A stretch of DNA of 64,000 bases from Labia minor (lineage: Eukaryota; Arthropoda; Insecta; Dermaptera; Spongiphoridae). Positions 8,644 to 63,055 of this stretch are shown here, one piece after another. Made by a program: the position numbers and the translations under genes. The DNA lies in assembly GCA_963082975.1 (NCBI GenBank), contig OY720350.1, positions 10,386,910-10,450,909 on the forward strand, given 5' to 3'. Each line of letters starts with the position of its first letter. The stretch's first letter is position 1. Under the pieces are notes generated by a model. That model was not told the DNA's origin. It did no database searches and saw nothing but the letters and a program-made list of their open reading frames with translations.

Positions 8644-9246
8644 ACTATCTCGCCAGAGATAGTATTGCGATCACGAAAATTTTCGATGTTGAGATTTTGA
8701 TGTTTTAATACGTTTTGAAGGTTCCTGAATCATTTTCACTAAGGTTGAGAAAAATGTCTGTGTGTGTGTGTGTGTGTGTATGTAGACAAGATTACGCAAA
8801 AAAGGTTTGAGCTAGAATGATGAAATTTGGTACATGAGCATTATTCAAAATTCGTAGTTTTCTATCAACTTTTGAGAAATGTAGTTCAACCGGAAGAGGG
8901 TCATTACCTACAACGTTTTGATTTTTTTTCCTCTAAAGTGACCGTAAAAATAAAGATATATGTTTGATAATTTTTCACATGATTAAAGATTGTATAAAAC
9001 TGCTATATATAGAATTTCAGCTTGATTGATTCACTGAAATTACCAGAATTAATTTTTTAACACTGCAATTCTCACGCGCCAACATGTGACGTGGTGCCAT
9101 CAACAAAAAGCCAAACATGCGCTGGTTTAATATTTATTATTTATAATTTATAATTAATTAAATTTAATTTAAATATAATATATTATGTTATTTAATCCAA
9201 TTCTCAAATTGCGAGATAGTCGAGTGGAGACACTCCAGCTAATTTT
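8644..9246 (+). mobile_element. Helentron-like family A, tandem copy 1
   Basis: Starts ACTATCTCGCCAGAGATAGT, a perfect 8-bp stem with loop GCCA. A (TG)n lies near 8759-8780. Then come GAAATTTGGTAC and CCGGAAGAGGG. The 3' side carries GCGAGATAGT, the GAGTG-GAGA-CACTC hairpin and CAGCTAATT, one base different from the family end. Copy 2 begins immediately after it. Confidence 0.9.
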
Positions 9247-9376
9247 ACTATCTCGTCAGAGATAGTATTGCGACCACAAAAATTTTCGATGTCGAGATTT
9301 TGATGTTTTTATACGTTTTGAAGGTTCCTGAATCATTTTTACTAAAGTTGAGAAAAATATCTGTGTATATATGTAT

Positions 9377-9408
<32 letters not shown>

Positions 9409-9875
9409 AGACAAGATTATCCAAAATCGGTTTGAGCTAGAATGATGAAATTTGGTATACGGGCATTATTCAAAATTCGCAGTTTTCTATCAACTTTTGA
9501 GAAATGTAGCTCAACCGGAAGAGGGTCATTACCTACAACGTTTTGATTTTTTTCCCCTAAAGTGACCGTAAAAAAAAAATATATATTTGATAGTTTTTCC
9601 ACATGATTAAAAATTGTATAAAACTGATATGTATAGAAATTCAGCTTGATTGAATCGCTGAAAGTACCAATATTATTTTTTTTAAACTACAAATCACGCG
9701 CCAACACGTGACATGGTGTCATCAACAAAGAGCCAAACGTACGCTGGTTTAATAAATATTATTTATTAATTTTAATTTATAATTTATAATTAATCAAATT
9801 TAATTTAAATCAAAAATATGTTATTTAATCCAATTCAAATTCCGAGATAGTCGAGTAGAGACACTCCAGCTTATT
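9247..9875 (+). mobile_element. Helentron-like family A, tandem copy 2
   Basis: Starts ACTATCTCGTCAGAGATAGT right after the TTTT that closes copy 1, in the same orientation. Its (TG)n tract near 9379-9408 is longer than that of copy 1. The 3' end has CCGAGATAGT, a hairpin with one stem or loop change, and CAGCTTATT. The reverse-strand frame at 9417-9602 is only repeat sequence. Confidence 0.9.
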
Positions 9876-10364
9876 TTAATATATAAATATGAATTTCATA
9901 CTTATGGCTTGAACGAACTTAAAAAAAAAATAAATATGTATAGTAAAAACCGATTAAAAAAATATGATGGTAAGTATGAAGGTAATTAATGATTTTCGCA
10001 CAACTATAATTTATGGTAAAGAAACAAAAGGTAATTGAAATTCCAAAAGTAATTAAGGTCGTTTTTTCACAAGTGACAATTTTTGTTTTTAAGGTGGACT
10101 TCTTGTAAAGTTTATTATTTAATTATTATTATTATTATTATTATTTAAAAAAATAAATAAATTTATAGTTTAATGGAAAAAAAGTAAAATTATTGAATAA
10201 TAATAATAATATTAATACTAAATTCAGTCAAAAGTATTGATTGACACATACTTTAGCAAGATATAAAAAAACAAAAAAAAAAAAACTCGGGCTTTGAGTC
10301 ATCCTATACAATCATTTTGATCTTAACCAACTTCCGTTAGTTTTTTCCACCTTTGTAATTACAG
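9876..10364. other. AT-rich, probable intron upstream of exon candidate
   Basis: ATT repeats near 10125-10145 and an A run near 10268-10285. The last 25 bases before 10365 are pyrimidine-rich and end TGTAATTACAG, a good splice acceptor. Confidence 0.4.
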
Positions 10365-10451
10365 GGAATGTCAGACGGGTTGGGGGGATCACCATTCACA
10401 CCACCATTTGGTGGACCCACTCACACAGGGACATCATTCCAAAGTTCTTGA
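10365..10451 (+). CDS. Candidate terminal coding exon, unknown gene
   Basis: After the acceptor TTTTTTCCACCTTTGTAATTACAG the sequence is open in phase 0 for 28 codons and stops at TGA 10449-10451. The peptide starts GMSDGLGGSPF and ends TGTSFQSS. It is rich in Gly, Pro, Ser and Thr, like the disordered C-terminus of a transcription-factor-type protein. Base composition is far less AT-biased than the surroundings, and this continues about 350 bases past the stop as expected of a 3' UTR. I do not recognise the family. The call rests on the splice site, composition and downstream poly(A) signal. The upstream exons are not visible. Confidence 0.4.
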   Translation, partial: GMSDGLGGSPFTPPFGGPTHTGTSFQSS

Positions 10452-10885
10452 CGTTGCTTCTGATTAAACACCGGAACCCGCTTGTTTGGAATTGTCCGAG
10501 AATCTTAGTTAATAAATTTGTTTTCCCAGTTAATTTTCACTTAGTTCATCTTGACTTTTCCGGTAGCTTCAGAACACCGGACACCGCAAAGGATAATTAC
10601 TAATTAACATGGTTTGTGACTTGTGGAGGGTCAAACCAGAGATCCTAGAGAAGAAAACCTTTGTCAAATGCCGCCCTCCACAAATGCTTGATCCAAAATG
10701 TCATCTCATGACTTTTAATGATTTATCCTATCGAAGATTATCCCTGACGGAATCCTGTTAGGAAGATGACCAGCCGAAATAGCCATCTATTCTATTTTAA
10801 TTAATCCATTTCTAAAAACGATACTTATATTAGTTTATATTATTATAGTCTATTGATATAAATAAAAGCAATAAATTTATATAAT
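10452..10885 (+). other. Candidate 3' UTR with poly(A) signal
   Basis: GC-richer unique sequence runs from the stop codon to about 10790 and then becomes AT-rich. AATAAA occurs at 10861-10866, and a second AATAAA follows eight bases later. CCGGACACCGC and CTCCACAAATGC are inside. It could instead be conserved non-coding DNA. Confidence 0.35.
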
Positions 10886-11128
10886 AATAGATCTATGAGG
10901 TGAAATAATTGAGTTTCGAAAAGATCAAAGAATTAGTTTTAATTAAATAAATTTGTATTTAATATTATTAATATTTATCATTAAAGAATTAATTTACTGA
11001 TGATTACCAACCAAATATTATTAATAATATTTTTTTAAATATCAAAAGAATTTAAAACATTTATTAAAGAATTTTATGAATTATTTAATTATTTTTATAA
11101 AATAATTTTTTGTTTAATTTATTAAAAA
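10886..11128. other. AT-rich filler
   Basis: Almost pure A/T with AATATT repeats. No feature seen. Confidence 0.5.
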
Positions 11129-11401
11129 ATAAATCTGGAGTGTCTCCACTCGACTATCTCGCAAAAATTTGATGGCGCATGATTTGCAGTCGTTTTAAAA
11201 AATTAATTCCGGTACTTTCAGCGATTCAATCAAGCTGAAATTCTATATATAGCAGTTTTATACAATTTCTAATCATGTGAAAAATTATCAAACATATATT
11301 TTTATTTTTACGGTAACTTTAGAGGGAAAAAAATCAAAACGTGGTAGGTAATGTCCATCTTCCGGATGAGCTACATTTCTCAAAAGTTGATAGAAAACTA
11401 A
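11129..11401 (-). mobile_element. Helentron-like family A, 3' half
   Basis: Reverse 3' end with TCTGGAGTGTCTCCACTCG (hairpin) and ACTATCTCGC, then GCGATTCAATCAAGCTG and ATATATAGCAG. It breaks off after AAAGTTGATAGAAAACTA at 11401. The 5' half with the microsatellite is missing. Confidence 0.8.
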
Positions 11402-11707
11402 AAGATTATTTAGAAAATTTCTATTTTCAAATTTTTAAGAATTCATTTGTATTCATTTTTTGTTATTTTTTTTATTATTGAAATTATGAAGTTTATTAGC
11501 TTTTTAGAAAATTATCATTTTTAAAAGTTTGGAAGTTAGTTACCATTCATTCATTCATCCATTTTATAAAAAAGTTTAATAAATATCAAAATATTTCATT
11601 CTCTCATCAGGGAAAGAATTGAAATTTTTTTGTGATAAATGCATTTCCTTCTTTCAAAAGTAACACGCTCAGGGAAAACCCAGTTATTTATTTTTTATTT
11701 ATGTCTA

Positions 11708-12331
11708 AATAAGTTGACCTGTGGCCAGGTCCGAACCGACCGACGGTTTGAAATAAATTAATTTCCAGCTACAGAAACAATTTCAAATAATTTTCATATA
11801 TCTATTAATGTAATAAAAAACAGATATGGATACATAAATAATAAATATAAACATTTTTAATTTTATTTTATTTATAATATATATGCAAGACCAGGCTGTG
11901 ACGTCATGAATGGCTGGATGACGTCATATAATTTTAAATCAAGAAAAAACTAATAAATATGATTTTTCTCGAGGATAAAACCAATACAAAGTGCATGATT
12001 CGTGGTGATATATAAAAAAATCTCCTTTGGTGTGAAAATAACCCTTTCCTTCCTATCGTCGATCGCTAATACTACCACTTCCGGTTTCCAGAATTGCACC
12101 AAAAGTTGATCAATTCATCCCACTGATGCATTAAGTAAATATACCAAATTTCATCAAAATCGGTTGAGCCGTTCAGGCTGTACACATCTATACGGACGGA
12201 CAGACGGACAGACATCATGCTAAAAATACTTTTTTCTGTTTAGAAAATGCATGATTCGTGGAGATATGTAAAAATCTCCACATGTGAAATTTGGTGTGAA
12301 AACAATACCTCCCTTACTATCGTCGGTCGGT
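11708..12331 (-). mobile_element. Helentron-like family C, near full length
   Basis: Reads AATAAGTTGACCTGTGGCCAGGTC: the 3' tail and the hairpin GACCTG/CAGGTC. CGAACCGACCGACGG, the inner inverted repeat, follows. Two TGACGTCA sites lie at 11899 and 11919. The CCGGTTTCC motif, the GGAC microsatellite near 12195-12212 and the 5' end CGTCGGTCGGT at 12331 complete it. Confidence 0.9.
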
Positions 12332-12895
12332 AAAAATTTAACTATTGGATCCTTAAGTCGAGATTTGAGTCCTAAATTGAATGAAAAACGTTTTTGAATA
12401 TTTTAATCCAACTACCAAGTGATAAATAATACGAAGTGAATAAAATAATATGAGTATCAACGTTTTATCTATCAATTTTCAATTATCTTTCTTACAATGG
12501 TTTGTATTTATTTTCCACATTTTATTTATAGATGATAATTTCTTTAAGAAAATAACATTTAAAAAGAGTTAACTATTCTATGTATATTTTTCTTAAATAT
12601 ATAAATATAATTTATTTTTATGTAATAATAAATCTTGTATAAAAAGGTGGTAATAATTTACATGTTATCATGAGAATAACGTTTTCATATAATTAAACGT
12701 CTAGTGAGAGTGCGAAGCGTGTGATCCGATGGTAGGAGAGAGAGAAGGTGTGCAAGAAGAGTAGGGAGATTTAAATTCTAAGTGGGGAGAGAGAGAGAGA
12801 AAGAGAGTGAGAGAATGATGGAGAGGGAGAAAAGGTGGAGAGTTGAACTGATGGTTGTTGATGGACTGCCATGTGATAGAGAGTGATTTTCGAAG
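12332..12895. promoter_or_regulatory. Purine-rich upstream region of candidate exon
   Basis: AT-rich to about 12690, then a GA-rich tract (12730-12845) with repeated GAGAGA directly upstream of the GC-rich island. GAGA-type repeats are common near animal promoters, but no TATA box or initiator can be defended. Regulatory role is inference only. Confidence 0.25.
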
Positions 12896-13039
12896 ATGGT
12901 TCCGTCGAATACTGCCGGTGGTCAGTTTTTGTTGTTTGTGCCGGCCGCGGCGAGTGGGATTCCATCCGTGGCTCCGGAGGTGCCGCTGCCCGCCGGAATG
13001 TCCTCGTTAAGAGCCAACCAGGAGGAGGAGGAGGAGAAG
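12896..13039 (+). CDS. Candidate first coding exon, unknown gene
   Basis: ATG at 12896 opens 48 codons up to AAG, followed by a splice donor (AAG then GTACTT at 13040). Without splicing the frame reaches TGA at 13061-13063 (55 aa). The peptide begins MVPSNTAGGQFLLFVPAAAS and ends NQEEEEEK, and it is Ala/Pro/Gly-rich. Third positions favour G/C, unlike any nearby sequence. A second plus-strand frame and a minus-strand frame (Pro-rich) are also open across the same island, so strand and frame are not certain. No family recognised. Confidence 0.35.
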
Positions 13040-13063
13040 GTACTTCTCCTTCCAGCTGCATGA

Positions 13064-13740
13064 CAACATGCGCTATATAAACGACTGGGTGTTTCACAAG
13101 CATTACATTCAAAAAGTATTTACTTTATAAACAATGAACCGTTCATTTAACTTCACACATTATCAAACAATCGATTATTATATAATCAGTAATAATTAGT
13201 GATGAATAGATGTAGTACTATTAATCAAACAAACAAAATAAAGTTTTTCTCGTCTGGTACCATATTGATCAGATTATCTATCTGAAAATACTGCATTATT
13301 ATGGTAGGGTGAGTGGGGTCAGCGACATTGAACTCGATTTTAACTCTTTCCATTCATCGGGATCATTCTTAGTAGACAACAATTGTATTATCCATATTGA
13401 ACTGGCTGAATAGTCAAACATAACTAGTTAATTTCATTAAAAAGTAATAATCATAAGGAAAAAAAAATGTTAAATATAAGAGTATAACTGTATTGTAATT
13501 TACATGAATTTGATTATATTGAAATATTAAAATTTTAATAATTATAGGATATTAATATGAAATAGACAGAGAAAGTGTTGTGTATACTACGTGGCCGTCT
13601 TCGGACTTGTAGACCTGTTTCAGTATATATTTTTACTTGGCAAGAAAAAAAAAAGATTTATTTGTAGAATTCATTTATAATTATTAATTATCGATCTGTC
13701 ATTAAATATTATTCATAAACTGATTAAAAATTTCGAATGA
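13064..13740. other. Probable intron or intergenic, nothing firm
   Basis: Mostly A/T with slightly richer patches at 13300-13390 and 13580-13620. No clear exon. Confidence 0.4.
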
Positions 13741-13950
13741 CATGAAAATATATAGTATTTGTAAAACACCCTGTGCGTCGTTTGAGTACACTTGTACACA
13801 TGCACACGCGATTCAATCATTTTTCACGCGGCTCGTTGGTTGGGCCCGCAGGAGGCTTCTTCCTTCGGTTTGCGTGCGCCCCTTCCAGTCCCCTCTTCTT
13901 CTTTCTCTATCAGTCTCTCCCACTCTCTCTCTCTCTCTCTTTCTCTCTCA
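13741..13950. other. GC-richer island with CT microsatellite
   Basis: Contains GGTTGGGCCCGCAGGAGG and GTGCGCCCCTTCCAG, then a pyrimidine tract that becomes (CT)n at about 13919-13949. Three overlapping frames are open only because of the CT repeat, which gives Ser/Leu runs. I call none of them. Confidence 0.5.
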
Positions 13951-13955
13951 CTCAC

Positions 13956-14049
13956 TCTTGAGGCCCCGCTTAAAATAATCATCCTCGATTATAGTGTTGA
14001 AAGGCTCTGGCACCAGACCTGGATCTGGATGTGTACCTGTACCGGCATT
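13956..14049 (-). CDS. Weak exon candidate, minus strand
   Basis: The reverse strand is open from about 14049 for 33 codons (NAGTGTHPDPGLVPEP..., later IIEDDYFKRGLK) and reaches a strong donor-like GTGAGT at 13955-13950. The donor is formed by the edge of the GA/CT microsatellite and may be accidental. No convincing polypyrimidine tract lies upstream. The plus strand is also open here. Unknown function. Confidence 0.2.
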
Positions 14050-14139
14050 GAAATGTTTTTTTTTGTTTTTAGCAAGCAAAGTAAAATAACATCATTGGGC
14101 AAAGTAAAAGAACAGTTACGCACTTTTTTCAATATTTAA

Positions 14140-16459: not shown

Positions 16460-17087
16460 ACCGACCGACGATAGTAAGGGAGGTATTGTTTTCACACCAA
16501 ATTTCACATGTGGAGATTTTTACATATCTCCACGAATCATGCATTTTCTTAACAGAAAAAAGTATTTTTAGCATGATGTCTGTCCGTCCGTCCGTCCGTA
16601 TAGATGTGTACAGCCTGAACGGCTCAACCGATTTTGATGAAATTTGGTATATTTACTTAATGCATCAGTGGGATGAATTGATCAACTTTTGGTGAAAATC
16701 CGGAAACCGGAAGTGGTAGTATTAGCGATCGACAATAGGAAGGGAAGGGTTATTTTCACACCAAATTTCACATGAGGAGATTTTTTTACATATCACCACG
16801 AATGTATTGGTTTTATCCTCGGGAAAAATCATCTTCATTACGTTTTTCTTAATTTAAAATTATATGACGTCACCCAGCCCTTCATGACGTCACAGCCTCG
16901 GGTAACGCCGGCTACTTCAGCTATATATTATAAATAAAATAAAATTAAAAATATTTATGTTCTATCCATATCTGTTTTTTATTACATTAATAGATATATT
17001 AAAATTATTTGAAATTGTTTCTGTAGCTGGAAATTAATTTACTTCAAACCGTCGGTCGGTTCGGACCTGGCCACAGGTCAACTTATT
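16460..17087 (+). mobile_element. Helentron-like family C, full length
   Basis: The 5' end ACCGACCGACGATAG follows five T. Then come CACATGTGGAGATTTTT, ATGTCTGTCCGTCCGTCCG, CTGAACGGCTCAACCG, GAAATTTGGTAT, CCGGAAACCGGAAGTGG, two TGACGTCA boxes (16865 and 16885), TAGCTGGAAATT, CCGTCGGTCGGTTC, hairpin GACCTGGCCACAGGTC and AACTTATT. This is the best reference copy in the window. The frame at 16486-16695 is repeat-derived. Confidence 0.92.
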
Positions 17088-18289
17088 TTAATTGTTTTGT
17101 AAGCAAAAGAAATCCATAAGAAAGACGTAACATTGACATAGAGAAGAAGACGAAAATTTTCATTTTATTTTTTTTGGTTTTTTTTTATTACAATGGCCTG
17201 CTATACTTAGCATGTATACCAATAATTATATATCTAGGTATGATGTATTTTGAAGATCATATAAATATATTATTAAATGTTATATGTTACCAAGGAATAT
17301 TTTAAAACAGTTTTCTTGATATATATCAATAATTATAATAAAACTTTTCACGTAATAAAACTAACGTCTAAAAAGTAAAAAATTAAATAAAAAAAAAAAA
17401 TAATGATAATTTTAATAAATTATATTATAAGGATCAAAAGCGGTTCAAATTCTTATCAAGGTAATCTATTAACATGATATAGTATAGAAACTCCTTTTTT
17501 TTGTAATCAGATTCATTCTCAACTTAATTAAATAGTTTTATTTTGTTGTTTTTCTTTTTGTTTTTTACTTGAAAATCCACTTTTTTGTTATACTAACATC
17601 GAAAAGATTGGGATTTATGATAGATTTAATTACTAGAAAAAAATTCAAGATTCCATCGAGATTACTTACATAGGAATTTTCATTCGTTCCTTTTCAGTAT
17701 TAAACAAAAGAGAGGGAACGAGAGAATCTAGTGGAGAGAGAAGAAAAGATAATTTATCTTAGAAATAAAAATAAAGTTAACTACAGTATTAAAATACTAA
17801 ATTCTCTAATAAAATGACGGCTAATGAATTTTCTAAAGTTCTAAATTAGACTCGAAGAATGTCTATTGTATATAAACACACAGGGACAGAATCATAGCAA
17901 CTTTGCGAATTTTTCGTTTTTTGTTTTTTTTTTTTGTCATTTTAATAATTATTATGTAATTTCTTTCAAATGAATATTTTCCAATTAATTATATAATATT
18001 TTATTTACTTATAAAAACATGACAGAAAAGAAAAAAAAGATATAAAAGATTATTTCAATTTTGTTTTTATTTAGTAATTTAAATTGGATTAAATATGAAA
18101 AAGAAAAGATGAACTTTTTACTGGATTATCATTGTGTGTGTTTTTTTTAAATAAAAAGATGAATTCTCAATGTAAACTATTAAAATGTGAATATTAACAA
18201 ATAAATTATAATTGCCTCGTTTCTACTTTAATTTTAAAATTAAAATCAATTTTTTTTTTTATGATTTAATGAAAGAGAAATTATTTATT

Positions 18290-18342
<53 letters not shown>

Positions 18343-18689: not shown

Positions 18690-18787
18690 CTTATTACATC
18701 TCTAAAATTATATAAATTATACTATATATGAATAAAAAGTAATATTTAAAAAATAAAATACATATTCCCATTAATAGAAAATATTTT

Positions 18788-19191: not shown

Positions 19192-19200
19192 AAATATTTT

Positions 19201-20013: not shown

Positions 20014-20049
<36 letters not shown>

Positions 20050-23460: not shown

Positions 23461-23739
23461 AGAAAATCAAAACGTTGTAAGTAATAACCCTCTTCCGGTT
23501 GAGCTACATTTCTCAAAAGTTGAGAGAAAACTACGAATTTTGAATAATTCCCGTATACCAAATTTTATGTTTCTAGCTCAAACCGTTTTTGCGTAATCTT
23601 GTCTACATACATATACACACACACAGACAGACATTTTTCTCAACTTTAGTGAAAATAATTCAGGAACCTTCAAAACGTATAAAAACATCAAAATCATAAC
23701 ATCGAAAATTTTCGTGATCGCATGATCTGGCGAGATAGT
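23461..23739 (-). mobile_element. Helentron-like family A, 5' half
   Basis: Reverse orientation. Starts inside the element at ATCAAAACGTTGTAAG, passes CTTCCGGTTGAGC, CAAATTTTATG and a short CACACACACAGACAGACA, and ends GATCTGGCGAGATAGT (5' end) before AAAAATA. The 3' part with the hairpin is missing. Confidence 0.8.
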
Positions 23740-26132: not shown

Positions 26133-26306
26133 GTCAAATTAAAAATGATGCTACACATTTGTAACATTAAATATGATAATGCCTAACTAGAACTTGTTTT
26201 CCTATCGGGATACAAGTCTAATTATCTTTTCTTTTTTAATTTATTTCACTGTATAAAAAAAAATTAATTCACTGGATAATAATATAATAATAAATAAAAT
26301 AAAATA

Positions 26307-26614
26307 AATAAGCTGGAGTGTCTCTACTCGACTATCTCGCAAATTTGAATTGGATTAATTAACATATATTATATTTAAATTAAATTTAATTAATTATAAA
26401 TTGTAAATTAAAATAAATAAATAATATTTATTAAATCAGCGCATGTTTGGCTCTTTGTTGATGACATCACGTCATTTGCAGTGTTAAAAAACACCGATCC
26501 ACATCGATTCAAGCTGAAATTCTATATATAGCAGTTTTATACAATTTTTAATCATGTGGAAAAACTATCAAACATATATCTTTATTTTTACGGTCACTTT
26601 AGAGGAGAATATTG

Positions 26615-26689
<75 letters not shown>

Positions 26690-26808
26690 AGAGAGACATT
26701 TTTCTCAACCTTAGTGAAAATGATTCAGGAACCTTCAAAACGTATAAAAACATCAAAATCTCGACATCGAAAATTTTCGTGATCGCAATACTATCTCTGG
26801 CCAGAAGT
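26307..26808 (-). mobile_element. Helentron-like family A with long (CA)n
   Basis: Reverse 3' end AATAAGCTGGAGTGTC, hairpin arm (one change) and ACTATCTCGC. The middle is deleted between the AGAGGAGAA segment and the microsatellite, so the GAAATTTGG and CCGGAAGAGG block is absent. It ends ACTATCTCTGGCCAGAAGT, a slightly altered 5' terminus. Confidence 0.85.
26618..26686. repeat. (AC)n microsatellite
   Basis: About 34 uninterrupted AC units followed by GAGAGAGAGACA, at the fixed microsatellite position of the enclosing A element. Both strands give His/Thr or Val/Cys runs that are not proteins. Confidence 0.97.
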
Positions 26809-31232: not shown

Positions 31233-31862
31233 ACCGACCGACGATAGTAAGGGAGGTATTGTTTTCACACCAAATTTCACATGTGGAGATTTTTACATAT
31301 CTCCACGAATCATGCATTTTCTTAACAGAAAAAAGTATTTTTAGCATGATGTCTGTCCGTCCGTATAGATGTGTACAGCCTGAACGGTTCAACGGATTTT
31401 GATGAAATTTGGTATATATACTTAATGCATCAGTGGGATGAATTGATCAACTTTTGGTGCAAATCCGGAAACCGGAAGTGGTAGTATCAGCGATCGACGA
31501 TAGGAAGGGAAGGGTTATTTTCACACCAAATTTCACATGAGGAGATTTTTTTACATATGACCACGAATGTATTGGTTTTATCCTCGGGAAAAATCATGTT
31601 CATTATGTTTTTCTTAATTTAAAATTATATGACGTCACCCAGCCCTTCATGACGTCACATCCTCGGGTAACGCCGAGCAATGCCGGCTACTTCAGCTATA
31701 TATTATAAATAAAATAAAATTAAAAATATTTATGTTATATCCATATCTGTTTTTTATTACATTAATAGATATATTAAAATTATTTGAAATTGTTTCTGTA
31801 GCTGGAAATTAATTTATTTCAAACCGTCGGTCGGTTCGGACCTGGCCACAGATCAACTTATT
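31233..31862 (+). mobile_element. Helentron-like family C, full length, empty site known
   Basis: ACCGACCGACGATAG to hairpin GACCTGGCCACAGATC (one stem change) and AACTTATT. TGACGTCA at 31630 and 31650. The flanks, TTATTATATTTTT on the left and GTGAATTTGG on the right, are found joined without the element at 33185-33215, with no target duplication. Confidence 0.95.
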
Positions 31863-35470: not shown

Positions 35471-36044
35471 ACTATCTCACCAGAGATAGTATTGCGATCA
35501 CGAAAATTTTCGATGTCGAGATTTTGATGTTTTTATACGTTTTGAAGGTTCCTGAATCATTTTCACTAAGGTTGAGTAAAATGTCTGTCTGTGTGTGTGA
35601 CACGAATATCCAAAAACGGTTTGAGCTAGAATCATGAAATTTGGTATACGGGCATTATTCAAAATTCGTAGTTTTCTATCAACTTTTAAGAAATGTAGCT
35701 CAATCGGAAGAGGGTCATTACCTACAACGTTTTGAGTTTTTTCCTCTAAAGTAACCGTAAAAATAAACATATATTTCGATAATTTTTCACATGATTAAAA
35801 ATTGTATAAAACTGCTATATATAGAATTTCAGCTTGATTGAATCGATGAAAGTACTGAAATTAATTTTTTAACACTGCAAATCACACGCCAACAACAAAG
35901 AGTCAAACATGCGCTGGTTTAATAAATAAATAATTATTTATTAATTTTAATTTATAATTAATTAAATTTAATTTAAATATAATATATGTTAATTAATCCA
36001 ATTCAAATTTGCGAGATAATCGAGTGGAGACACTCCAGCTTATT
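35471..36044 (+). mobile_element. Helentron-like family A, full length
   Basis: ACTATCTCACCAGAGATAGT (8-bp stem) after five T. The microsatellite is reduced to GTCTGTCTGTGTGTGTG. Then GAAATTTGGTAT, GGAAGAGGG, GCGAGATAAT, perfect hairpin GAGTG-GAGA-CACTC and CAGCTTATT. Useful as a near-complete copy with a short microsatellite. Confidence 0.92.
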
Positions 36045-37490: not shown

Positions 37491-38192
37491 CTCTTCATAA
37501 CACTCATCTACAGGAGGAGTAACTCCAATGATCAGTAAATGTTTTTATTTTGTTAGTTTAACTAACTAATATCACAAATAAGAAAAAAAAATGTATAAAC
37601 AAAACAATTGGGTTTGGCGGAATGAGAAAGAAGTAAAGAGCCGAATCACCGAGGCACAGCCTAACATTTTGGAACTAAACTTTAACAAGATATTTTTAAA
37701 AAGGTTTCATTTTTCATAAATGCTCTTACATAAGAAATTAATCTCCACTTAAATTTCAAAAAGAGAAGATAATTTTAGTATTTATCATATAATTGAAGTT
37801 AGTTTCGTGGTATTTATTTTGTACTCAATTTTAGTTTTAATAGGAAAGTATATTTCTGCAAAAGAGTGACGTTCACTGTATCCTGAATGGACGTTGTATG
37901 AAGCACCCGGAGAGGTTAATCGGATTGCCGACACTCAATAAGGACCTCCACTGATTTAATCGAGGGCTTATCTCTTTCAGCTGTCAGAATCGGCTTCCAA
38001 TATTCCGACCAACTTTGTGACAGATAGAATGAGAGCTTTCATACAATCGGCCAAACATTTGTAGTGAAAGTTTAAGATGAATTTCACCCTTTTCGTCATT
38101 ATTTGTTAGGGATCATCATTAAAAATTCAGGAAGATATACTCGATATTCAATAGTTTGAAAGTATTTAAAACACATTTATTTAAAAAAAAAA
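37491..38192. other. AT-rich with a richer unique patch
   Basis: 37865-38070 is GC-richer (GAAGCACCCGGAGAGG, GGCTTATCTCTTTCAGCTG) but closed in all frames. Possibly conserved non-coding DNA. Confidence 0.4.
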
Positions 38193-38934
38193 AATAAGCT
38201 GGAGTGTCTCCACTCGACTATCTCGCAAATTGGAATTGGATTAATTAACATATATTATATTTAAATTAAATTTAATTAATTATAAATTAAAATTAATAAA
38301 TAATTATTTATTTAATAAATCAGCACATGTTTGGCTCTTTATTGATGGCACCACGTCACATGTTGGCGCCTGATTTGCAGTGTTAAAAAATTAATTCCGG
38401 TACTTTTATCGATTCAATCAAGCTAAAATTCTATATATAGCAGTTTTATACAATTATTAATCATGTGAAAATTATCAAACATATATCTTAATTTTTACGG
38501 TCACTTTAGAGGAAAAAACCCTCTCCCGGTTGAGCTACAATTCTCAAAAGTTGATAGAAAACTACTAATTAATTATAAATTATAAATTAAAATAAATAAA
38601 TAATATTTATTAAACCAGCGCACGTTTGGCTCTTTGTTGATGACACCACGTCACGGGTTGGCGCGAGATTTGCAGTTGTTAAAAAAATAATTCTGGTACT
38701 TTGAGCGTAATGACCCTCTTTCGGTTGAGCTACATTTCTCAAAAGTTGATAGAAAACTACGAATTTTGAATAATGCCCGTATACCAAATTTCATCATTCT
38801 AGCTCAAACCGATTTTGGATAATCTTGTCTACACACACACAGACATTTTTCTCAAACCTTAGTGAAAATGATTCAGGAACCTTCAAAACGTATAAAAACA
38901 TCAAAATCTCAACATCAAAAATTTTCGTGATAGT
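38193..38934 (-). mobile_element. Helentron-like family A, internal duplication
   Basis: Reverse 3' end with intact hairpin. At 38563 the sequence jumps back to the AT segment before CCAGCGCACG and repeats TTTGGCTCTTTGTTGATG and GATTTGCAG. It then continues via TAATGACCCTC and CGAATTTTGAATAATGCCC to a truncated 5' end (TTCGTGATAGT). The copy is therefore chimeric or slippage-rearranged. Confidence 0.85.
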
Positions 38935-40997: not shown

Positions 40998-41605
40998 ACC
41001 GACCGACGATAGTAAGGGAGGTATTGTTTTCACACCATATTTCAGATGTGGAGATTTTTACATATCTCCACGAATCATGCATTGGCTTAACAGAAAAAAG
41101 TATTTTTAGCATGATGTCTGTCCGTCTACTGTGTGTCCGTATAGATGTGTACAGCTTGAACGGCTCAATGGATTTTGATGAAATTTGGTATATTTACTTA
41201 ATGCATCAGTATGATGAATTGATCAACTTTTGGTGTATATCCGGAAACCGGAAGTGGTAGTATTACCGATCGACGATAGGAAGGCAAGGGTTATTTTCAC
41301 ACCAAATTTCACATAAGGAGATTTTTTTTAACATATCTCCACAAATCATGCACTTTGTATTTGTTTTATTCTCGGGAAAACCATCTTCATTAGTTTTTTC
41401 TTAATTTAAAATTATATGACGTCACCCAGTCCTTCATGACGTCACAGCTAGCGCCTCCTTATATATTATAAATAAAATAAAATTAAAAATGTTTTTTATT
41501 TCATTAATAGATATATTAAAATTATTTGAAATTGTTTCTGTAGCTGGAAATTAATTTATTTCAAACCGTCGGTCGGTTCTGCGCCTGGCCACAGGTCAAC
41601 TTATT
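40998..41605 (+). mobile_element. Helentron-like family C, full length
   Basis: ACCGACCGACGATAG after five T. TGACGTCA at 41417 and 41437. CCGTCGGTCGGTTC, hairpin CCTGGCCACAGG (outer pair altered) and AACTTATT. It is shorter than 16460 and 31233 between the CRE pair and the 3' end. The frame at 40970-41260 is repeat-derived and closely resembles that at 16486-16695. Confidence 0.9.
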
Positions 41606-49593: not shown

Positions 49594-49863
49594 TAAGGTG
49601 ACCAACCGTCCTCCTTTAGGGAAGCCAGTCCTCCATTTGTAAGCTCTGTCCTTTTTACCGACCGACGATAGTAAGGTCGGTTCGGACCTGGCCACAGGTC
49701 AACTTATTTGTAAGTGTCCTCCTAATTGACCTTCTTTTTGATATCTGTCCCGGTTTTTGAAATATTTAGGACAGTTCGTACTTTTTTTTCAAAATTTTTT
49801 CAATTTGCTTCTAAAAAAAAGGTAAAATGTCCTGATTTGGTGTTTTCAAAATATGCTCACCTT
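49594..49863. mobile_element. hAT-like MITE, gtgacc type, perfect TSD
   Basis: TAAGGTGACCAACCGTCC to ATATGCTCACCTT, flanked by AATATTAT (49586-49593 and 49864-49871). It contains the 52-base C element at 49657-49708. Confidence 0.85.
49657..49708 (+). mobile_element. Minimal family C element (two ends only)
   Basis: ACCGACCGACGATAGTAAGG is fused directly to TCGGTTCGGACCTGG and the rest of the 3' hairpin, ending AACTTATT. Five T precede it, and the host hAT continues on both sides. It shows that about 20 bases of the 5' end and 32 of the 3' end can be found as a unit. Confidence 0.9.
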
Positions 49864-49957
49864 AATATTATGAATGAATATATGTTAAAGAAAACGTGGC
49901 TACAATGAAAAAATAAACTAATCCAAGAAGTTTTTTTAATAATAAAGTAATCAATAC

Positions 49958-50018
49958 ATTACATTAATAGATATATTAAAATTATTTGAAATTGTTTCTG
50001 TAGCTGGAAATTAATTTA
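49958..50018 (+). mobile_element. Family C 3' internal fragment
   Basis: ATTACATTAATAGATATATT through GTTTCTGTAGCTGG matches the region upstream of the C 3' repeat. Neither end is present. Confidence 0.7.
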
Positions 50019-53391: not shown

Positions 53392-53478
53392 CAAAACAAG
53401 TTATTTTTGTTTGTTTTGTTTTTGTTTTTTTCTTTCAAAAAAGACAAATTCATTTTAAAAAAAATATCTATCCATAAG

Positions 53479-55102: not shown

Positions 55103-55689
55103 AATAAGCTGGAGTGTCTCCACTCGACTATCTCGAAATTTGAATTGGTTTAAATAACAAATATTAATTTAAATTAAATTTAATTAATCATAAATTATAA
55201 ATTAAAATTAATAAATAATATTTATTAAACCAGCGCATGTTTGGCACCACGTCACGTGTTGGTGCGTGTGATTTGCAATGTTAAAAAATTAATTCCGATA
55301 CTTTCAGCGATTCAATCAAGCTGAAATTCTATATATAGCAGTTTTATACAATTTTTAATCATGTGAAAAATTATCTAACATATATCTTTATTTTTACGGT
55401 CAGTTTAGAGGAAAAAAAAAATCAAAACGTTGTAGGTTGAGCTACATTTCTCAAAAGTTGATAGAAAACTACGAATTTAATGCCCGTATACCAAATTTCA
55501 TGATTCTAGCTTAAACCGTTTATTCGTAATCTTGTCTACATGCATACACTTACACACACACACATACACACACACAGAGAGAGAGAGAGACATTTTTCTC
55601 AACCTTAGTGAAAATGATTCAGGAACCTTCAAAACGTATAAAAACATCAAAATCTCAACATCAAAGTTTTTCGTGATCGCAATACTATA
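55103..55689 (-). mobile_element. Helentron-like family A, lost 5' terminus
   Basis: Reverse 3' end AATAAGCTGGAGTGTC with intact hairpin, then ACTATCTCG. A CACACA/GAGAGA microsatellite sits near 55553-55590. It ends at GATCGCAATACTAT without the outer GCGAGATAGT. Small internal deletions remove the CCGGAAGAGGG motif. Confidence 0.88.
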
Positions 55690-56200: not shown

Positions 56201-56244
<44 letters not shown>

Positions 56245-56674: not shown

Positions 56675-57657
56675 CTTTCTCAACCTTTTTTACTTTCCCG
56701 CATACTTCATATAAGGGAAGTATTGGAATCGTCAAAAATTTCGACTTCGAGATTTCGATAGATCTTGACGTTTTAGACCTCCCTGAGTCAGAAAATACCA
56801 TTTTTCGAATTATGTCTGTGTGTATGTATGTATGTATGTATGTATGTAATGTCTGTAAGCAAATTTACTCAAAAACTAATCAAGCTAGGACTTCGAAATT
56901 TGGTACACCGATATTATTCACAGTTTGTAGATTTCTATCAAAATTTCGTCAAAATCGGTTAACCGGAAGTGGTACTTTACCTACACTGGTTGCGTTTACC
57001 TTTCAAGTAAAGTACCAGTTTGCTTCGAGATATTTGCTTCATATTTTGTATATAGATTTAAAAATATGAAAAAAATTCAGATACCAAATTTCATCATGAT
57101 CTGAATACCGGAAGTGACATTTTACCTATACAAGTAGCGTTAAGTGTAAATTATAAATATATATAATAGTGTTAAACCATTTTACATTATAATTTAAATT
57201 AATTAGTTTGTTTATTTTTATTGTTGTTAAAACATAATAATAATAACCTAATTACCTATTTATATGCGGGAAAGTCTAGGGGAGGACACTCCCGAATTTT
57301 TTTTACCGCGGCACACTTTTAACGGTTTAAAAATTGGGGGCACACAAATAAAAAGATAATTGTAAAAGTTCTCCACATTGAAAAAAGTGGTCCCAAAAAC
57401 GGTTTACCTTATTTTTTGAACCATATTGAAAGAATTTAGAAAAAAAGTCGGAAATGTTAAAGAACCTAGTCCCAAAAACGTTTTACTTTTTTTTTTAGAA
57501 CTAAAGTGAAAAAATTTAGAAAAAAAAGTCGGAAATGTTTAAGAACCTAGTCCCAAAAACGTTTTACTTTTATTTTTAGAACCAAATTGAAAAAAATTTA
57601 GAAAAAAAAGTTTAAGTTTGAAAATCTCGCGGCACAGTAAAGTGTTGAGAATCACTG
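56675..57657. mobile_element. hAT element split by a B element
   Basis: The left end is decayed (CCTTTCTCAACC) and the right end is GTTGAGAATCACTG. Flanks TTCTAGAC and TTCTAGAA (7 of 8). After the B insertion the hAT resumes at TTTACCGCGGCACAC. Its right half has three similar segments built around CCCAAAAACG and AAAGTCGGAAATG. Confidence 0.8.
56692..57297 (+). mobile_element. Helentron-like family B, near full length
   Basis: ACTTTCCCGCATAC after six T. Then GGAAGTATTGGAATCG, a (TATG)n after ATGTCTGTGTG, GAAATTTGGTACAC, CGGTTAACCGGAAGTGG, TATGCGGGAAAGT, and hairpin GGGAG-GACA-CTCCC. It ends in a T run where GCTTATT has decayed to GAATT. The best reference copy of B. Confidence 0.9.
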
Positions 57658-57665
57658 TTCTAGAA

Positions 57666-57905
57666 TAAAGAAAATGAAAGCAATTCAAAAACAAAGAAAA
57701 CTAATAATAAATAAAAAAATGAAAGATTTGTGAACGGAATTTTTATTAATACAAGTTTGATATAAGTAAATATACTGGTGGGTGTAAAACTGTAATTGTT
57801 TTTATACTAAACTAGTATTTAATTGGACAGATGCATTTGCTCACGTACATACAGATATCATCGTAAAAATGTCAAAAAAGTATACCTGGAGGATTCTAAA
57901 TTGTA

Positions 57906-57938
<33 letters not shown>

Positions 57939-58657
57939 TTTAATAACGGTATTATAACAATATGTATTTTCTTTTATATTCATAAAAATAATACATATTA
58001 TTATTATTAATATATACCATGTATTTATCGCAAAATATTTTTTCTTATACATTATATTTATACATAATGTACTAGTTTTTCCTATTTGAATAGGTTGGAA
58101 TGTATAAATTGAGGTTTCCATTATAAATTCTCATGTTAAACAGAATGTTAGACAGAACATAACAATATTTTGACAAATCATTCATAATCGGTTGAAAATC
58201 AATAGAAAGTTCGAATCATTGAAATAGTTTTCCCGCCTCCTTGCCAATTAACAGTGACCTGGAGATTTTTCACTGATCGTGTTCGTTGTTGAGAAGATGG
58301 ATAGGTTGGAAAAATAATGTCAATAGCGAGTCTGTCTAATTGAATCGAAAATGTTTGGAGTGCCTCGCTTATTCATAGTGCTGTGTCATAAATACAATCT
58401 CAGTTGAAGCGGGAGAGCAGGAGGGGCCAAAAGGCTTTGCTTGATAGATGAGCCCATTGAAAAGGGATCGGTAAGCGCAATGACAGATTTGCAGGTTGTG
58501 ACCTCTCCTGTTCAATTGGCCAGAGCCTCATCCCTCTAGTCGAAATATTGACTCTGTCATTGAGATGGATTGCAGGTTAAATCGATCAGCGAGGTTAGTT
58601 ACCATTCGATCATTTCCATTCGAAACTAAAAGAGTGTGAGTGATGCACTACAATTCA
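57666..58657. other. AT-rich, then a GC-richer unique island
   Basis: (TA)n near 57906-57932. 58225-58630 is clearly less AT-biased (GAAGCGGGAGAGCAGGAGGG, TCAATTGGCCAGAGCC) but closed in all frames. A conserved non-coding element is plausible. Confidence 0.45.
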
Positions 58658-58753
58658 AAACAAGTGATTTTTTTTATTTGTTTTGTGTTTTTGTTTTTGT
58701 TTTTTTCTTTTAAAAAAGACAAATTCATTTTAAAAAAAATATCTATCCATAAG

Positions 58754-59030
58754 GGCGCCATTGGGTGTGTGGGTAGCGAACCTGCCTCACATTCACATGG
58801 TCCCGAGTTCAAGTCCCGGGCCTGACAAGGGAATTTCCCTAGCTGGGGTCTATGGGACGGAGTCAACCCAGCCTCCGGGAACAACATTGGGGAAAAGCTA
58901 CTTGATAGCGCCTCCGATCAAGAAAATCAAGGTAAAGGTTGAGAGGACTCGTTCTACTGATCATAGGACACCTCGTTGCTATAACCGGCTTGATAGGCGT
59001 AGTCCTTGCTTAGGACGTACAAAGTCAGTT
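58754..59030 (+). mobile_element. tRNA-derived SINE, most complete copy
   Basis: TGGGTAGCGAACCTGCC, GAGTTCAAGTCCCGGGCC (B box), GCTGGGGTCTATGGGACGG, CCTCCGGGAACAACATTGGG, GGCGTAGTCCTTGC, GTCAG plus T run. ATCTATCC occurs on both sides, consistent with a target duplication. Confidence 0.9.
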
Positions 59031-59177
59031 TTTTTTTATCTATCCGTTAAATTAATTTATTTAATTAAAATACTTTAGATGTTAAAATTAAAAATCTGGA
59101 GCGAGAATCAAACCATTCTATATCTAGAAAATTTTCTCCAGAAGTTAATCTTATCTTATCTTATTATACTAAGAAAA

Positions 59178-59180
<3 letters not shown>

Positions 59181-59224
<44 letters not shown>
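59181..59224. repeat. (TA)n
   Basis: About 22 TA units, within an AT-rich frame that is not coding. Confidence 0.95.
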
Positions 59225-59227
<3 letters not shown>

Positions 59228-59245
59228 GATTAATTTATTAATTAA

Positions 59246-59400
59246 CAGCTCGAAGGATTTTTTTGAAATTCACACCATAGCTAATATTTATAAATACAAA
59301 TCGATCTGTATTGGTTTCAACCTGGAGAAAAATCATCTTCATTTGTTTTTTCTTAATTTAAATTTATATATGAATGACGTCACAAATGACAACCATTTTG
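59246..59400 (+). repeat. Diverged C-related repeat (variant D)
   Basis: GAAGGATTTTTTTGAAATTC, TTGGTTTCAACCTGGAG and TGACGTCA at 59375. Matches 28528 and part of 61330-61420 (reverse). Confidence 0.5.
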
Positions 59401-61019
59401 AAATTTGTCTCTTGCCAATTTTTTTTTTTAATTGATATTGTATTAATATTTTTTATATTTAAAATATTTAGAAAATTTATTATTTAATTTCGAAATAAAA
59501 TTAAAAATATTTATTTTAATAAAATTTATTAATCTGACAAAAAACAAAACAAATACGGCTTGGTAATTGTTTTGCACATATTTAAGTAGTGTTATTTTTA
59601 TTTTCTAAAATATTTGAGCCGCGTGGTTAAAGCTATCTTAAAGCCGACTCGAGTTCGAAGGATCGGAGCTCGCCAAGTGCATTGATATTTAAAAATAAAA
59701 AATAAAAATAATAAAATGGAGATATCTTCCAAAAAAAGGAAATTTATTAATGTATTGTCGTTAAATTTTTTGAAAATTCTTATAACTTTTGATTAGTTAA
59801 TTTTATATTATTTTTTGTTTATCTATTTTCATGTTTATTTTTTATAAAATTACTAATTTATATTTATTTATTCATTGTTTTTTTATTAATTAATTTTTAG
59901 ATAGTTTTATACTTTTTAATATTTTTTCACTAAAATATTATCTAATATTTATTAATATTATTAATTATTATTATTAAGGACCCCCCCCCCCCCCATTCAT
60001 TTTAATCAGATTGATGCAATGATGTAACATTTGATAATTGTATATCGATATATTTTTTAAAGGGTCGATGGATTGCTCGGTTTTCCAGGTATAATTAATT
60101 ATGATTATCGTATATGTATTTAACCATCTTGTAATACTATTAATTATAAATATCAGTTATCTAAAATAAAAACAAATTAAAATTAACACTTTCCATTAAA
60201 ATTTTTAATTGAGATTTTTAACTCATCACAACACCCTATATAGGTACATACATATATACATATATAATGTAAGTGAAAATAAAAAAAACAACTATAATAA
60301 TAATTATTATTTAATTTAATTAATTTTATATACATTTAATGTTTGTTTCAATAAATAAATAAATTAATAAAGTACACATTAATTATGCAAGTGAAGAAAG
60401 AAATAAAATGTTTTAAATGTCGGTAACGGTATTATTTAATCGATGTTTAATTAATTATAAAAGAGATGAAGAAATCATCCAATAAGAGATTTATAAATTA
60501 ATTGTCAAATAAATAGTGTTTTTAATTAAAATTAAGGAAATTTAAATTAAAATAGTTAATTAAATTATAATTGTATATTTTATTTAATTTTATAAATATA
60601 AGTAATTATAAATATTAAATAAAATGGTAAAATAAATTATCTAAATTATTAATTTAGAAATGAATTTCATTATGATTAAGTATAATTAATCATCATTAAT
60701 TTAAAATTTATAAAAGTAAAATACTTAATATTATAAGAGAGAATCCCTTTTTTTTGTTAATAGCAGCCCGGCCTTTCTCTACATGGTCGCCAATATTAAT
60801 GATTACTCCAAGTGGGGTAAAAACCGAATGAAAACAATTACATTATTGATTGATTTTAAAAATAAGTGAAAGGATCAAGCCAATGGGAAAAACGGACACC
60901 CACTAATTGCTAATTTATATACTCCTTAAACGTATGAATTTATGCACTGAAAGACAGAAAAGTAGACCTGTTGATATAAAATATATATATTTTCGTAAAT
61001 TTGATTTATTTATATGTAT
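59401..61019. other. AT desert with tRNA-like relic and C run
   Basis: 59617-59680 (GTGGTTAAAGC, GAGTTCGAAGG) resembles a degenerate tRNA or SINE head. A C14 run lies near 59981-59994. The rest shows nothing. Confidence 0.4.
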
Positions 61020-61500
61020 ATATAGATAAAAAGGGTTTTCACTGCACATTGCTGTGAATTTAAAATTTTTGCATATCTTCGCGTTTCATGACCTCTAGAA
61101 TCCAAGAGTCACTTAGGAATTTTTTATGACTGTCTGTCTAGAAATTTTGATGATATAGACTCAAAATTTTACAGTTTATTTACGGAGGCGCCGAATGACG
61201 AAATTGAATCTTCTAAACGTTGTGAAACAATTTCAAATAATTTAAATGTATCTATTAATGCAAAAAAAACAAAAAAACAAATATGGATATAATATAAATA
61301 TTGTTAATTTTATTTTAAGAATAGATATATTTACAGACGCTGGCTGTGACGTCATATCTATTTAAATTAAGAAAAAACTAATAAAGATGATTTTTCCCAG
61401 TGATCAATAAAACTCGATTTTTCTTTATAACTACTATCTCTGGTGTGGATATCAAAAAAATCGATCGAGCGGTTTCTGAGAACCCATTTAACTAGCATAA
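61020..61500. repeat. Rearranged C/D-related repeat
   Basis: Left part GACTGTCTGTCTAGAAATTT resembles the microsatellite zone of C. The middle matches reverse C (CAATTTCAAATAATTT). TGACGTCA at 61347. The right part AGCGGTTTCTGAGAACCC is specific to variant D. The mixed orientation suggests a rearranged or composite copy. Confidence 0.45.
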
Positions 61501-62494
61501 TAAGATTAGATTCTTCCCCTTATTATTAATCATCTTTCCTATTCTTTTCATCTATTCTTTTCTTATTTCCTTCCTTTTGCTAATTTAGAAAGTTTAGAAG
61601 TAAGAGAAGTTCTTTCTATTTTTCTCTTTCCTCCTTCCCCTTATAAAGACTAGCCACCCCCCCCCCCCCAAAATTGATGCAATTCGTTGATGACGTCTCT
61701 CCTTACAATATAAAAATTTATATTTGAATTATCAAACACTTATAATAAATTATTATAATAGTGTAGGTATATAATGTGAAATTTAAATTCTGGGTAAAAT
61801 TCAACATTTGAAATTTCTAAATTGTTTTCAGTCAATTTAAAGAAAATTTCAAAGATGTTTGTTAAATTTTATAAAATATATAAAAAAAAAATTCAAAAAT
61901 TTATATAATTTAAATTAACTTGTATAATAATTTATAATTGCAATTATATTTCGAAAAGTTATAAATATATTTTAATTTATAAGAACTGGAATATAATAAT
62001 AATAAGATTAGGTTAAATGATTCATTACTAGAATAATCTGCTAAAAAAAACTATCTTTGCTAACTTTTTAAAGAAAAACTTATAAAAAATAAAATACCTT
62101 CATTAAAATATATATCTTGAAACTTTTAGTCCATTAATAAATATAGACAAAAAAAATATATTATCCTTTAAAAATGAAAAACTTTTCATCCCCCACTTGG
62201 TAATATCAATAAAAAAGGTTTTTATTGTGATTGTATTTTTGTAATGAATGGCAAGCAAATTATATTATTTATGAAATAAAGTAGTAAAAAGTTTTTATTA
62301 TCATCTCATCTTTAGTCATCTCATCCTCTCTCAGTGGAATAGTAATGAGAGCGTTGAAGAGTCGAGGGTTGAAATGATAGATTAGAGGGAATGGAAGTGA
62401 AAATGTAGTCAAGCGGATTATTATAAAAATGCAAAATGTGTGTTCTAATTGAATGAAAATTTAACAATCCTATCCCAATTTATTACAATTATTT
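61501..62494. other. AT-rich filler
   Basis: C12-like run near 61657-61670. No exon. Confidence 0.5.
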
Positions 62495-62607
62495 ACTATC
62501 TCGCAAGAGATAGTATTGCGATCATGAAAATTTTCGATGTTGAGATTTTGATGTTTTTATACGTTTTGAAGGTTCCTGAATCATTTTCACTAAGGTTGAG
62601 ACAAATG

Positions 62608-62642
<35 letters not shown>

Positions 62643-63055
62643 ATGTAGACAAGTTTACGCAAAAACGGTTTAAGCTAGAATCATGAAATTTGGTAAACGG
62701 GCATTATTCAAAATTCCGTAGTTTTCTATCAACTTTTGAGAAATGTAGCTCAACCGGAAGAGGGCCATTACCTACGACGTTTTGATTTTTTCCTCTAAGG
62801 TGATCGTAAAGATATATTTTTAATAGTTTTTCATATAATTAAAGATTGTACAAAACTGCTATATATAGAATTTCAGCTTGATTGAATCGCTGAAAGTACC
62901 GGAATTAATTTTTTAACACTGCAAATCACGCGCTAAATATTATTTATTAATTTTAATTTATAATTTATAATAAATTAAAATTAATTTAAATATAATATAT
63001 GTTATTTAATCCAATTCAAAATTGCGAGATAGTCGAGTGGAGACACTCCAGCTTT
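62495..63055 (+). mobile_element. Helentron-like family A, full length
   Basis: ACTATCTCGCAAGAGATAGT, (CT)n then (GT)n near 62610-62642, GAAATTTGGTAAAC, CCGGAAGAGGG, GCGAGATAGT, intact hairpin, CAGCTTTTT. A segment near the CGCGC motif (CCAGCGCATG block) is deleted. Confidence 0.9.

What the first reader, a model, noticed from the sequence alone, without database searches (positions are those of the whole stretch)
8644..63055. Three repeat families share one Helentron-like architecture
Seen: families A, B and C each begin directly after a T run with a 10-13 base motif (A ACTATCTCGC, B ACTTTCCCGCATA, C ACCGACCGACG). Its inverted copy lies near the 3' end, followed within 1-4 bases by a hairpin with a 4-base loop, and all end CTTATT. 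Internally all have a GTATTG near the 5' end, ATGTCTGT plus microsatellite, AAATTTGGTA and CCGGAAG. Known: asymmetric terminal inverted repeats plus a 3' stem-loop and insertion at T-rich sites define Helentron/Helitron2 and their DINE-1/HINE derivatives. Inference: at least three subfamilies were mobilised by the same replication protein, with ends changed in concert (the 5' repeat and the inner 3' repeat co-vary).
Basis: partly seen in the sequence, partly recalled or inferred. Interest (0 to 1): 0.75.

Follow-up and report, generated by a model that had tools for sequence, protein, structure and literature searches.

The report
Three Helentron families, three matching replicases
Three very abundant repeat families in this animal genome look like cut-down passengers of rolling-circle transposons called Helentrons, and each family's special ends match a different, anciently separated larger element rather than one shared engine.

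Summary
In detail: families A, B and C begin after a T-run with a family-specific motif, carry its inverted copy near the 3' end, then a short hairpin. "All end CTTATT" is true of 12 of 17 ends in the window. The host genome (604 Mb) holds a 12.2-kb Helentron with A ends on both sides: its first 515 nt are 89.5% and its last 43 nt 100% identical to a window A copy, round a 2181-aa Rep-PIF1-endonuclease frame. A broken second one has B ends on both sides. A third has a C 5' end; its 3' end was not found. Three empty sites show T-run insertion without target duplication. The inference of one shared replication protein is not supported: the three Rep lineages are 51-58% identical, not one clade (AU p 1.3e-5), and B's is 74% identical to a spider protein. 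So A, B and C are non-autonomous Helentrons of a known kind, at very high copy number, whose ends go with their own Rep lineage. Side finding: a Ulp1/SENP-like domain ends the A-type protein.

The parts
8644..9246 (+). Family A, full copy A1; its 3' end abuts A2
   Evidence: nt 1-485 match the autonomous element at 89.5%, nt 561-603 at 100%
9247..9877 (+). Family A, full copy A2, head-to-tail with A1
35471..36044 (+). Family A, full copy
62495..63059 (+). Family A, full copy
4911..5488 (-). Family A, full copy
55103..55688 (-). Family A, match lacks the first 15 nt
26306..26805 (-). Family A, copy with decayed 5' motif
38191..38931 (-). Family A, 5'-truncated, overlapping matches suggest an internal duplication
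23463..23739 (-). Family A, 5' part only
11135..11400 (-). Family A, 3' part only
56692..57304 (+). Family B, short form, full copy
   Evidence: autonomous B element matches nt 1-539 at 95.4% and nt 562-610 at 95.9%
1871..2950 (-). Family B, long form, carrying a 3'-truncated C
2064..2474 (-). 3'-truncated C inside the long B copy
16460..17090 (+). Family C, full copy with duplicated core
31233..31862 (+). Family C, full copy
40998..41605 (+). Family C, full copy
11707..12331 (-). Family C, full copy
6408..6917 (+). Family C, diverged copy
49657..49708 (+). 52-nt C: 20 nt of the 5' end joined to the 3' end, inside another repeat
   Evidence: only copy in the genome (1 match, up to 2 mismatches of 32)

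Best explanation
A, B and C are three non-autonomous Helentron families (HINE/DINE-1-like), each an internal-deletion derivative of its own Helentron lineage. Most likely mechanism: the lineage's HUH Rep nicks between a T-run and the family-specific 5' motif; the fused PIF1 helicase peels off one strand; the inner 3' copy of the motif plus the hairpin mark the end; the strand, perhaps as a circle, joins into another T-run without target-site duplication. Shown by sequence: matching termini on Rep-encoding elements (A and B at both ends, C at the 5' end only), the protein domains, T-run targets, no duplication at three empty sites, separate Rep lineages. Inferred from known Helitron biology: nicking, strand transfer, any circle, and that each Rep acts mainly on its own ends.
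For: PF14214 search of the genome: 104 matches, 0 of 14 control genomes. Autonomous A element, C1 minus strand, 12,173 nt from TTTTT|ACTATCTCGC to CACTCCAGCTAATTTT: first 515 nt 89.5% and last 43 nt 100% identical to window A1. Its 2181-aa frame has DUF6570 1.3e-11, Helitron_like_N 1.3e-23, PIF1 1.9e-31 and the motif EFQMRGSPHEH, whose S between G and P is given as diagnostic of Helentrons in PMC4067079 (section read). C-terminal 480 aa: Exo_endo_phos_2 3e-4; the model's best PDB matches are AP-type nucleases, with LINE-1 EN second at 3.5e-10. B: a 5' end (95.4% over 539 nt) and a 3' end (95.9% over 49 nt) 13.8 kb apart round a broken Rep/helicase/endonuclease gene 58% identical to A's. C: C nt 1-521 (88%) plus leader directly upstream of a third gene. 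Empty sites: two B copies inside A elements (L003, L018) and the 52-nt C, 6 of 6 fetched empty copies agreeing. Direct repeats of 5 nt or more at the ends in 4 of 33 pairings, all low-complexity. Rep lineages not one clade: AU p 1.3e-5.
Against: C's full partner is unproven: no C 3' end in the 10.5 kb read beyond the C-type gene, and a 700-nt search with its endonuclease region finds only itself and 100 nt of the B element. The B element is broken by stops and holds a 5'-truncated A-type element. In the A element a 3'-truncated C-type insert lies between the A 5' end and the gene. The Pfam endonuclease score (21.1) is under the cut-off (27.4). The usual SDH of AP endonucleases reads YHKP in all three lineages. 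The number of terminal Ts is ambiguous by 1-2, and the empty sites of the 52-nt C read TTCTTTT where the filled site has six Ts in all. 5' and 3' C ends differ in number (31,715 v 21,927), only partly explained by C inside long B. No transposition was observed.
Confidence: 0.88

Rival explanations
1. One replication protein mobilised all three families; ends drifted in concert under it.
For: Same architecture and T-run target in all three; A and B share a 5' core at about 70% nucleotide identity and similar 3' hairpins; B has far fewer gene hits than copies.
Against: A, B and C ends sit on three different Rep lineages, 51-58% identical, not one clade; B's is nearer to spider and snail proteins and C's to a protein from an unnamed public assembly than to each other.
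Confidence: 0.1
2. They are MITEs of a cut-and-paste (DDE) transposon.
For: Short, non-coding, high copy number, with an inverted repeat.
Against: The inverted repeat is asymmetric; empty sites show no duplication; matching ends lie on Rep/helicase elements.
Confidence: 0.01
3. They belong to canonical Helitrons (5'-TC, 3'-CTRR, inserted between A and T), which are also present and look recent in this genome.
For: Canonical-type Rep genes (GLPHxH) are present, with seven copies 100% identical over 1186 aa.
Against: The A, B and C ends fit neither TC/CTRR nor A|T insertion; no exact A, B or C terminal motif lies within about 1.5 kb of the canonical-type Rep matches fetched, except a C 3' end and a B hairpin near one Rep match in L053, a decayed locus where no HxH motif was read.
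Confidence: 0.01

Closest known systems
Helentron / HINE (DINE-1-like) families, Thomas, Vadnagara and Pritham 2014, PMC4067079 (abstract, section 7 and passages seen)
   Same: Inverted subterminal repeats, 3' palindrome, T-rich insertion without target modification, Rep-PIF1-AP-endonuclease protein with GSPHxH, non-autonomous copies as deletion derivatives, several families per genome.
   Different: Inner 3' repeat ends about 24-27 nt from the 3' end (38-60 nt reported for mite HINEs); A's repeat is 10 nt; here several Rep lineages with different ends are compared in one genome by tree.
DINE-1 / INE-1 of Drosophila (passages of PMC4067079)
   Same: 13-bp-type subTIRs, an inverted repeat inside the 5' end (present in A), core sequence with microsatellite, 3' stem-loop, TT target.
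   Different: Sequences not compared here; no Drosophila DNA was at hand.
Helitron2 and Fusarium FoHeli elements, PMC5148889 (passages seen)
   Same: Asymmetric terminal inverted repeats, hairpins; FoHeli1/2 also end ATTTT.
   Different: No endonuclease domain; different target (TNAT).
Helentron proteins with tegument-like (VTD) or OTU deubiquitinase domains, PMC9741609 (passages seen)
   Same: Helentron protein carrying a ubiquitin-type cysteine protease.
   Different: The A-type protein carries a C-terminal Ulp1/SENP-like domain instead; the word 'ulp' does not occur in that text.

Membership tests
Helentron/HINE | Inverted subterminal repeats, the 3' copy internal (asymmetric) | tested here: met
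   A 10 nt, B 13 nt, C 11 nt (the paper's family rule of 11 nt is missed by A by one)
Helentron/HINE | Palindrome/stem-loop near the 3' end | tested here: met
   fold energy support uneven
Helentron/HINE | Insertion in T-rich sequence without target-site modification | tested here: met
   three empty sites; T number ambiguous by 1-2
Helentron/HINE | Matching termini on an autonomous element: family A | tested here: met
Helentron/HINE | Matching termini on an autonomous element: family B | tested here: met
   that copy is broken and holds an A-type element
Helentron/HINE | Matching termini on an autonomous element: family C | tested here: inconclusive
   5' end only; no 3' end found
Helentron | Rep motif with S between G and P (GSPHxH) | tested here: met
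   A; B and the C-type relative at C2:66557900: (that stretch was not in the C1 C-type pieces read)
Helentron | PIF1-type helicase fused to Rep | tested here: met
   A; B and C by alignment to A:
Helentron | C-terminal AP-type endonuclease | tested here: met
   fold; Pfam below cut-off; homologous stretch in B and C:
Helentron | RPA gene (present in some) | not tested
   only the 2181-aa frame of the A element was scanned
Helentron | Rolling-circle transposition through a single strand | not testable with these tools
   needs an assay
canonical Helitron | 5'-TC, 3'-CTRR, insertion between A and T | tested here: not met
MITE of a DDE transposon | Symmetric terminal inverted repeats and target-site duplication | tested here: not met

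The most novel reading that the evidence does not exclude
Helentron ends are a lineage-specific address: at least three anciently separate Rep lineages coexist in one nucleus, each reading its own three-part code (5' motif, its inner 3' copy, and in A and B a partner inside the 5' end), while a 5' non-coding core is kept between lineages (A and B about 70% at the nucleotide level, C weakly) although their proteins are only 51-58% identical. The core would then be a shared working part, such as promoter or replication origin, separable from the address.
Probability: 0.3. Interest if true: 0.6.

Novelty: new member of a known kind. Interest (0 to 1): 0.4.

Why it matters
Non-autonomous Helentrons are often filed without their engines. 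Here three of the most abundant repeats of one genome (5' ends: A about 17,400 places, C about 31,700; B about 3,400 copies by half of 6,796 motif places) are tied by sequence to Rep-encoding elements, and three end-sets can be set beside three Rep lineages in one host. That makes Rep-end specificity of Helentrons directly testable with natural matched and mismatched pairs. It also shows that similar architecture does not imply a shared replicase.

Tried and rejected
Rejected: one shared Rep; DDE MITE; canonical Helitron. The H1 group (GSPHIH, 1785 aa, four copies 99-100% alike) was tried first as partner: no A, B or C end in 12.9 kb round each of two copies. The gene at C2:66557900 has no A, B or C end in its flanks; it is a 5'-truncated relative (98%) of the C-type gene.

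A polarity test of rolling-circle transfer gave no clear answer: among the first 100 exact 5' and 100 exact 3' C ends listed, 55 of 99 and 55 of 98 in the common range are paired within 1 kb (random placement mean 1.5, highest 5 of 200 trials), so orphan 5' and 3' ends are equally common there, although counts with 1 mismatch show more 5' ends. Head-to-tail neighbours (A|A in the window, B|B in L015, A|B in L013) could be read as concatemers, but the A|B case fits insertion into the T-run at another element's 3' end. The 52-nt C is unique, so it says nothing of a minimal mobile unit. The 20-nt C start is in no record of genome contigs or viral contigs. Rfam: no match in the window. Host species was not determined.

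Papers: PMC4067079 outline, abstract, section 7 and passages; PMC5148889, PMC9741609 and PMC2836005 passages; others only as search listings. That I saw no Helentron with a Ulp1 domain in print rests alone.
Full report
What is there. The window is C9:10386910-10450909 of a 604-Mb, 71-contig genome. Three families with the described architecture are present. A begins ACTATCTCGC, B ACTTTCCCGCATA, C ACCGACCGACG, each after a T-run, each with the inverted motif near the 3' end followed by a hairpin. A structural scan that knew no motif found 6 such elements in the window against 0 in 19 and 1 in one of 20 simulated sequences. By blastn the three families cover 10,401 of 64,000 bases. The claim that all end CTTATT holds for 12 of 17 ends.

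How common. With one mismatch allowed, the A 5' end (20 nt) has 17,418 places and the C 5' end 31,715; reversed controls have none. The C 3' end has 21,927. B's 13-nt motif, which occurs at both ends, has 6,796 exact places against 5 in the control. B occurs as a short form of about 0.56-0.61 kb and a long form of about 0.9-1.5 kb (20 stretches of the B listing fetched, plus 8 loci with it). Three of three long copies compared (window, L001, L025) carry C nt 1 to 401-529 inside, so a C inserted in B was carried along when B multiplied. C itself has two sizes: of 55 paired 5' and 3' ends 12 lie 235-393 nt apart, 42 lie 554-642 nt apart, one 935; the longer form repeats its 5' start and core.

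The autonomous partners. PF14214 gives 104 matches in the genome and none in 14 control genomes. Most of the best belong to canonical Helitrons (GLPHxH). A Helentron-type gene at C1:47863894-47870436 (minus) has one open frame of 2181 aa with EFQMRGSPHEH, DUF6570, Helitron_like_N and PIF1. Upstream lies TTTTT|ACTATCTCGCCAGAGATAGTATTG and downstream GCGAGATAGTCGAGTGGAGACACTCCAGCTAATTTT, 12,173 nt apart. Against window A1 the first 515 nt are 89.5% identical and the last 43 nt 100%. A is therefore a deletion derivative of this lineage. Between the A 5' end and the gene lies about 2.1 kb starting exactly at a C 5' end and 90-97% identical to the start of the C-type element: a 3'-truncated C-type insert.

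B. In C1:44692848-44706630 (minus) a B 5' end (95.4% over 539 nt) and a B 3' end (95.9% over 49 nt) enclose a Rep/helicase/endonuclease gene broken by stops. Inside it lies an A-type element, 5'-truncated, whose last 43 nt equal those of window A1. C. At C1:55785337 (plus) C nt 1-521 (88%) and a leader of about 1.2 kb lead directly into a third gene. This copy has a large insert between Rep and helicase and no recognisable end: no C 3' end in the 10.5 kb read beyond it, and the only other match to its endonuclease region is 100 nt of the B element. C's pairing thus rests on the 5' end.

Same Rep or not. Over A-protein residues 400-1720 the A and B proteins are 58% identical (1298 columns), A and C 56% (1148), B and C 51% (1133). 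In a quick maximum-likelihood tree of 42 rows (37 of the homologues found, picked by hand for spread, and five of this genome) B's protein joins a spider (Araneus, 74%) and a snail (Physella), A's is sister to that group, and C's joins an unnamed assembly's protein; one clade of the genome's A, B and C genes is rejected (AU p 1.3e-5). The B and C rows come from broken copies read with X at stops, support is SH-aLRT only, and one row (H1) is a long branch. The nearness of B's gene to proteins of other phyla suggests transfer between species; this was not tested further.

Target sites. Of 33 end pairings in the window and loci (one 3' end used twice), 29 show no direct repeat of 5 nt or more; the other four are TTATT, ATTTTT, TTATTTTT and CTTTTTT. 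Two B copies sit in A elements at a T6 present in 4 of 5 A copies shown; 5+1 and 6+0 Ts flank them if the element ends CTTATT. The 52-nt C sits in a high-copy repeat; 6 of 6 fetched empty copies (of 40 matches) read CCTTCTTTTGTAAG where the filled site has CCTTTTT[C]TGTAAG: no duplication, with one C lost or changed.

Endonuclease and protease. The last 480 aa of the A-type protein match Exo_endo_phos_2 below the cut-off. A model (mean pLDDT 63; 70-90 or more over most of residues 41-240) finds AP-type nucleases, best 2jc4 1.5e-10, LINE-1 EN 3.5e-10. The motif usually SDH reads YHKP in the A-, B- and C-type proteins and in P0001; P0002 and P0003 keep D. Beyond it lies a Ulp1/C48-like segment: PF02902 0.0033 (17.7 bits, cut-off 20.7), SENP8 0.0035, with H, D, Q and C of the family aligned (GHW, FDSL, QSQQNNYDCG). 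The model is poor there (pLDDT about 40-80). Three of 120 listed Helentron relatives carry PF02902 in the precomputed column, but Pfam does not call it in P0001-P0003, where I read similar H-D-CG segments by eye.

Ends and mechanism. The 5' motif and its inner 3' copy are identical within a family and differ between families. In A the 5' motif also pairs with a copy 4 nt on (8-bp hairpin, z -3.6), in B less perfectly, in C hardly. PMC4067079 describes such an inverted repeat for DINE-1. A and B share a 5' core at about 70% (75% between B and the A-type element over 175 nt); C shares less. This mirrors the Rep tree, in which A and B are nearer to each other than to C. The likeliest mechanism is that of Helentrons in general: Rep nicking at T|A, strand peeling, recognition of the inner repeat and hairpin, joining at a T-run. 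None of it was observed here.

Verdict.

Noticed in passing
L063:1402-7944 (minus), residues about 2020-2181 of the 2181-aa frame: Ulp1/SENP-like cysteine protease segment at the C-terminus of the A-type Helentron protein, with the H, D, Q and C residues of the family in place.
   Followed up: partly
A-, B- and C-type Helentron endonuclease domains (L063, L072, L078): The usual SDH of AP-type endonucleases reads YHKP in all three lineages and in P0001; the domain may be altered or inactive.
   Followed up: no
L035-L041 (C9, C10, C1, C2, C5): Seven canonical Helitron copies 100% identical over 1186 aa, most with open frames of about 1650 aa: look recently active.
   Followed up: no
L054-L057 and L059-L062: A GSPHIH Rep/helicase element (1785-aa frame in one copy, which ends shortly after the helicase) in four nearly identical copies, with no A, B or C ends in the two copies read more widely.
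   Followed up: partly
G000:C5:46739897-46792979: Array of five identical-scoring Rep matches spaced 9817, 9817, 5689 and 5687 nt, with stops inside: tandem copies of a decayed Helitron-type element.
   Followed up: no
window 49595-49866: High-copy repeat with AAGGTGA...TCACCTT ends, hAT-MITE-like by eye, at least 40 scored copies; host of the 52-nt C.
   Followed up: partly
window 49958-50018: 61 nt identical to C nt 522-582 lies 250 nt beyond the 52-nt C, outside any C element.
   Followed up: no
HB gene, C1:44692848-44706630: B-type Rep is 74% identical to a spider protein and close to a snail protein, nearer than to the A- or C-type genes of its own genome: possible horizontal transfer.
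   Followed up: partly
genome-wide: More C 5' ends than 3' ends with one mismatch allowed (31,715 v 21,927), though exact ends listed for the first 3.6 Mb of C1 are balanced.
   Followed up: partly
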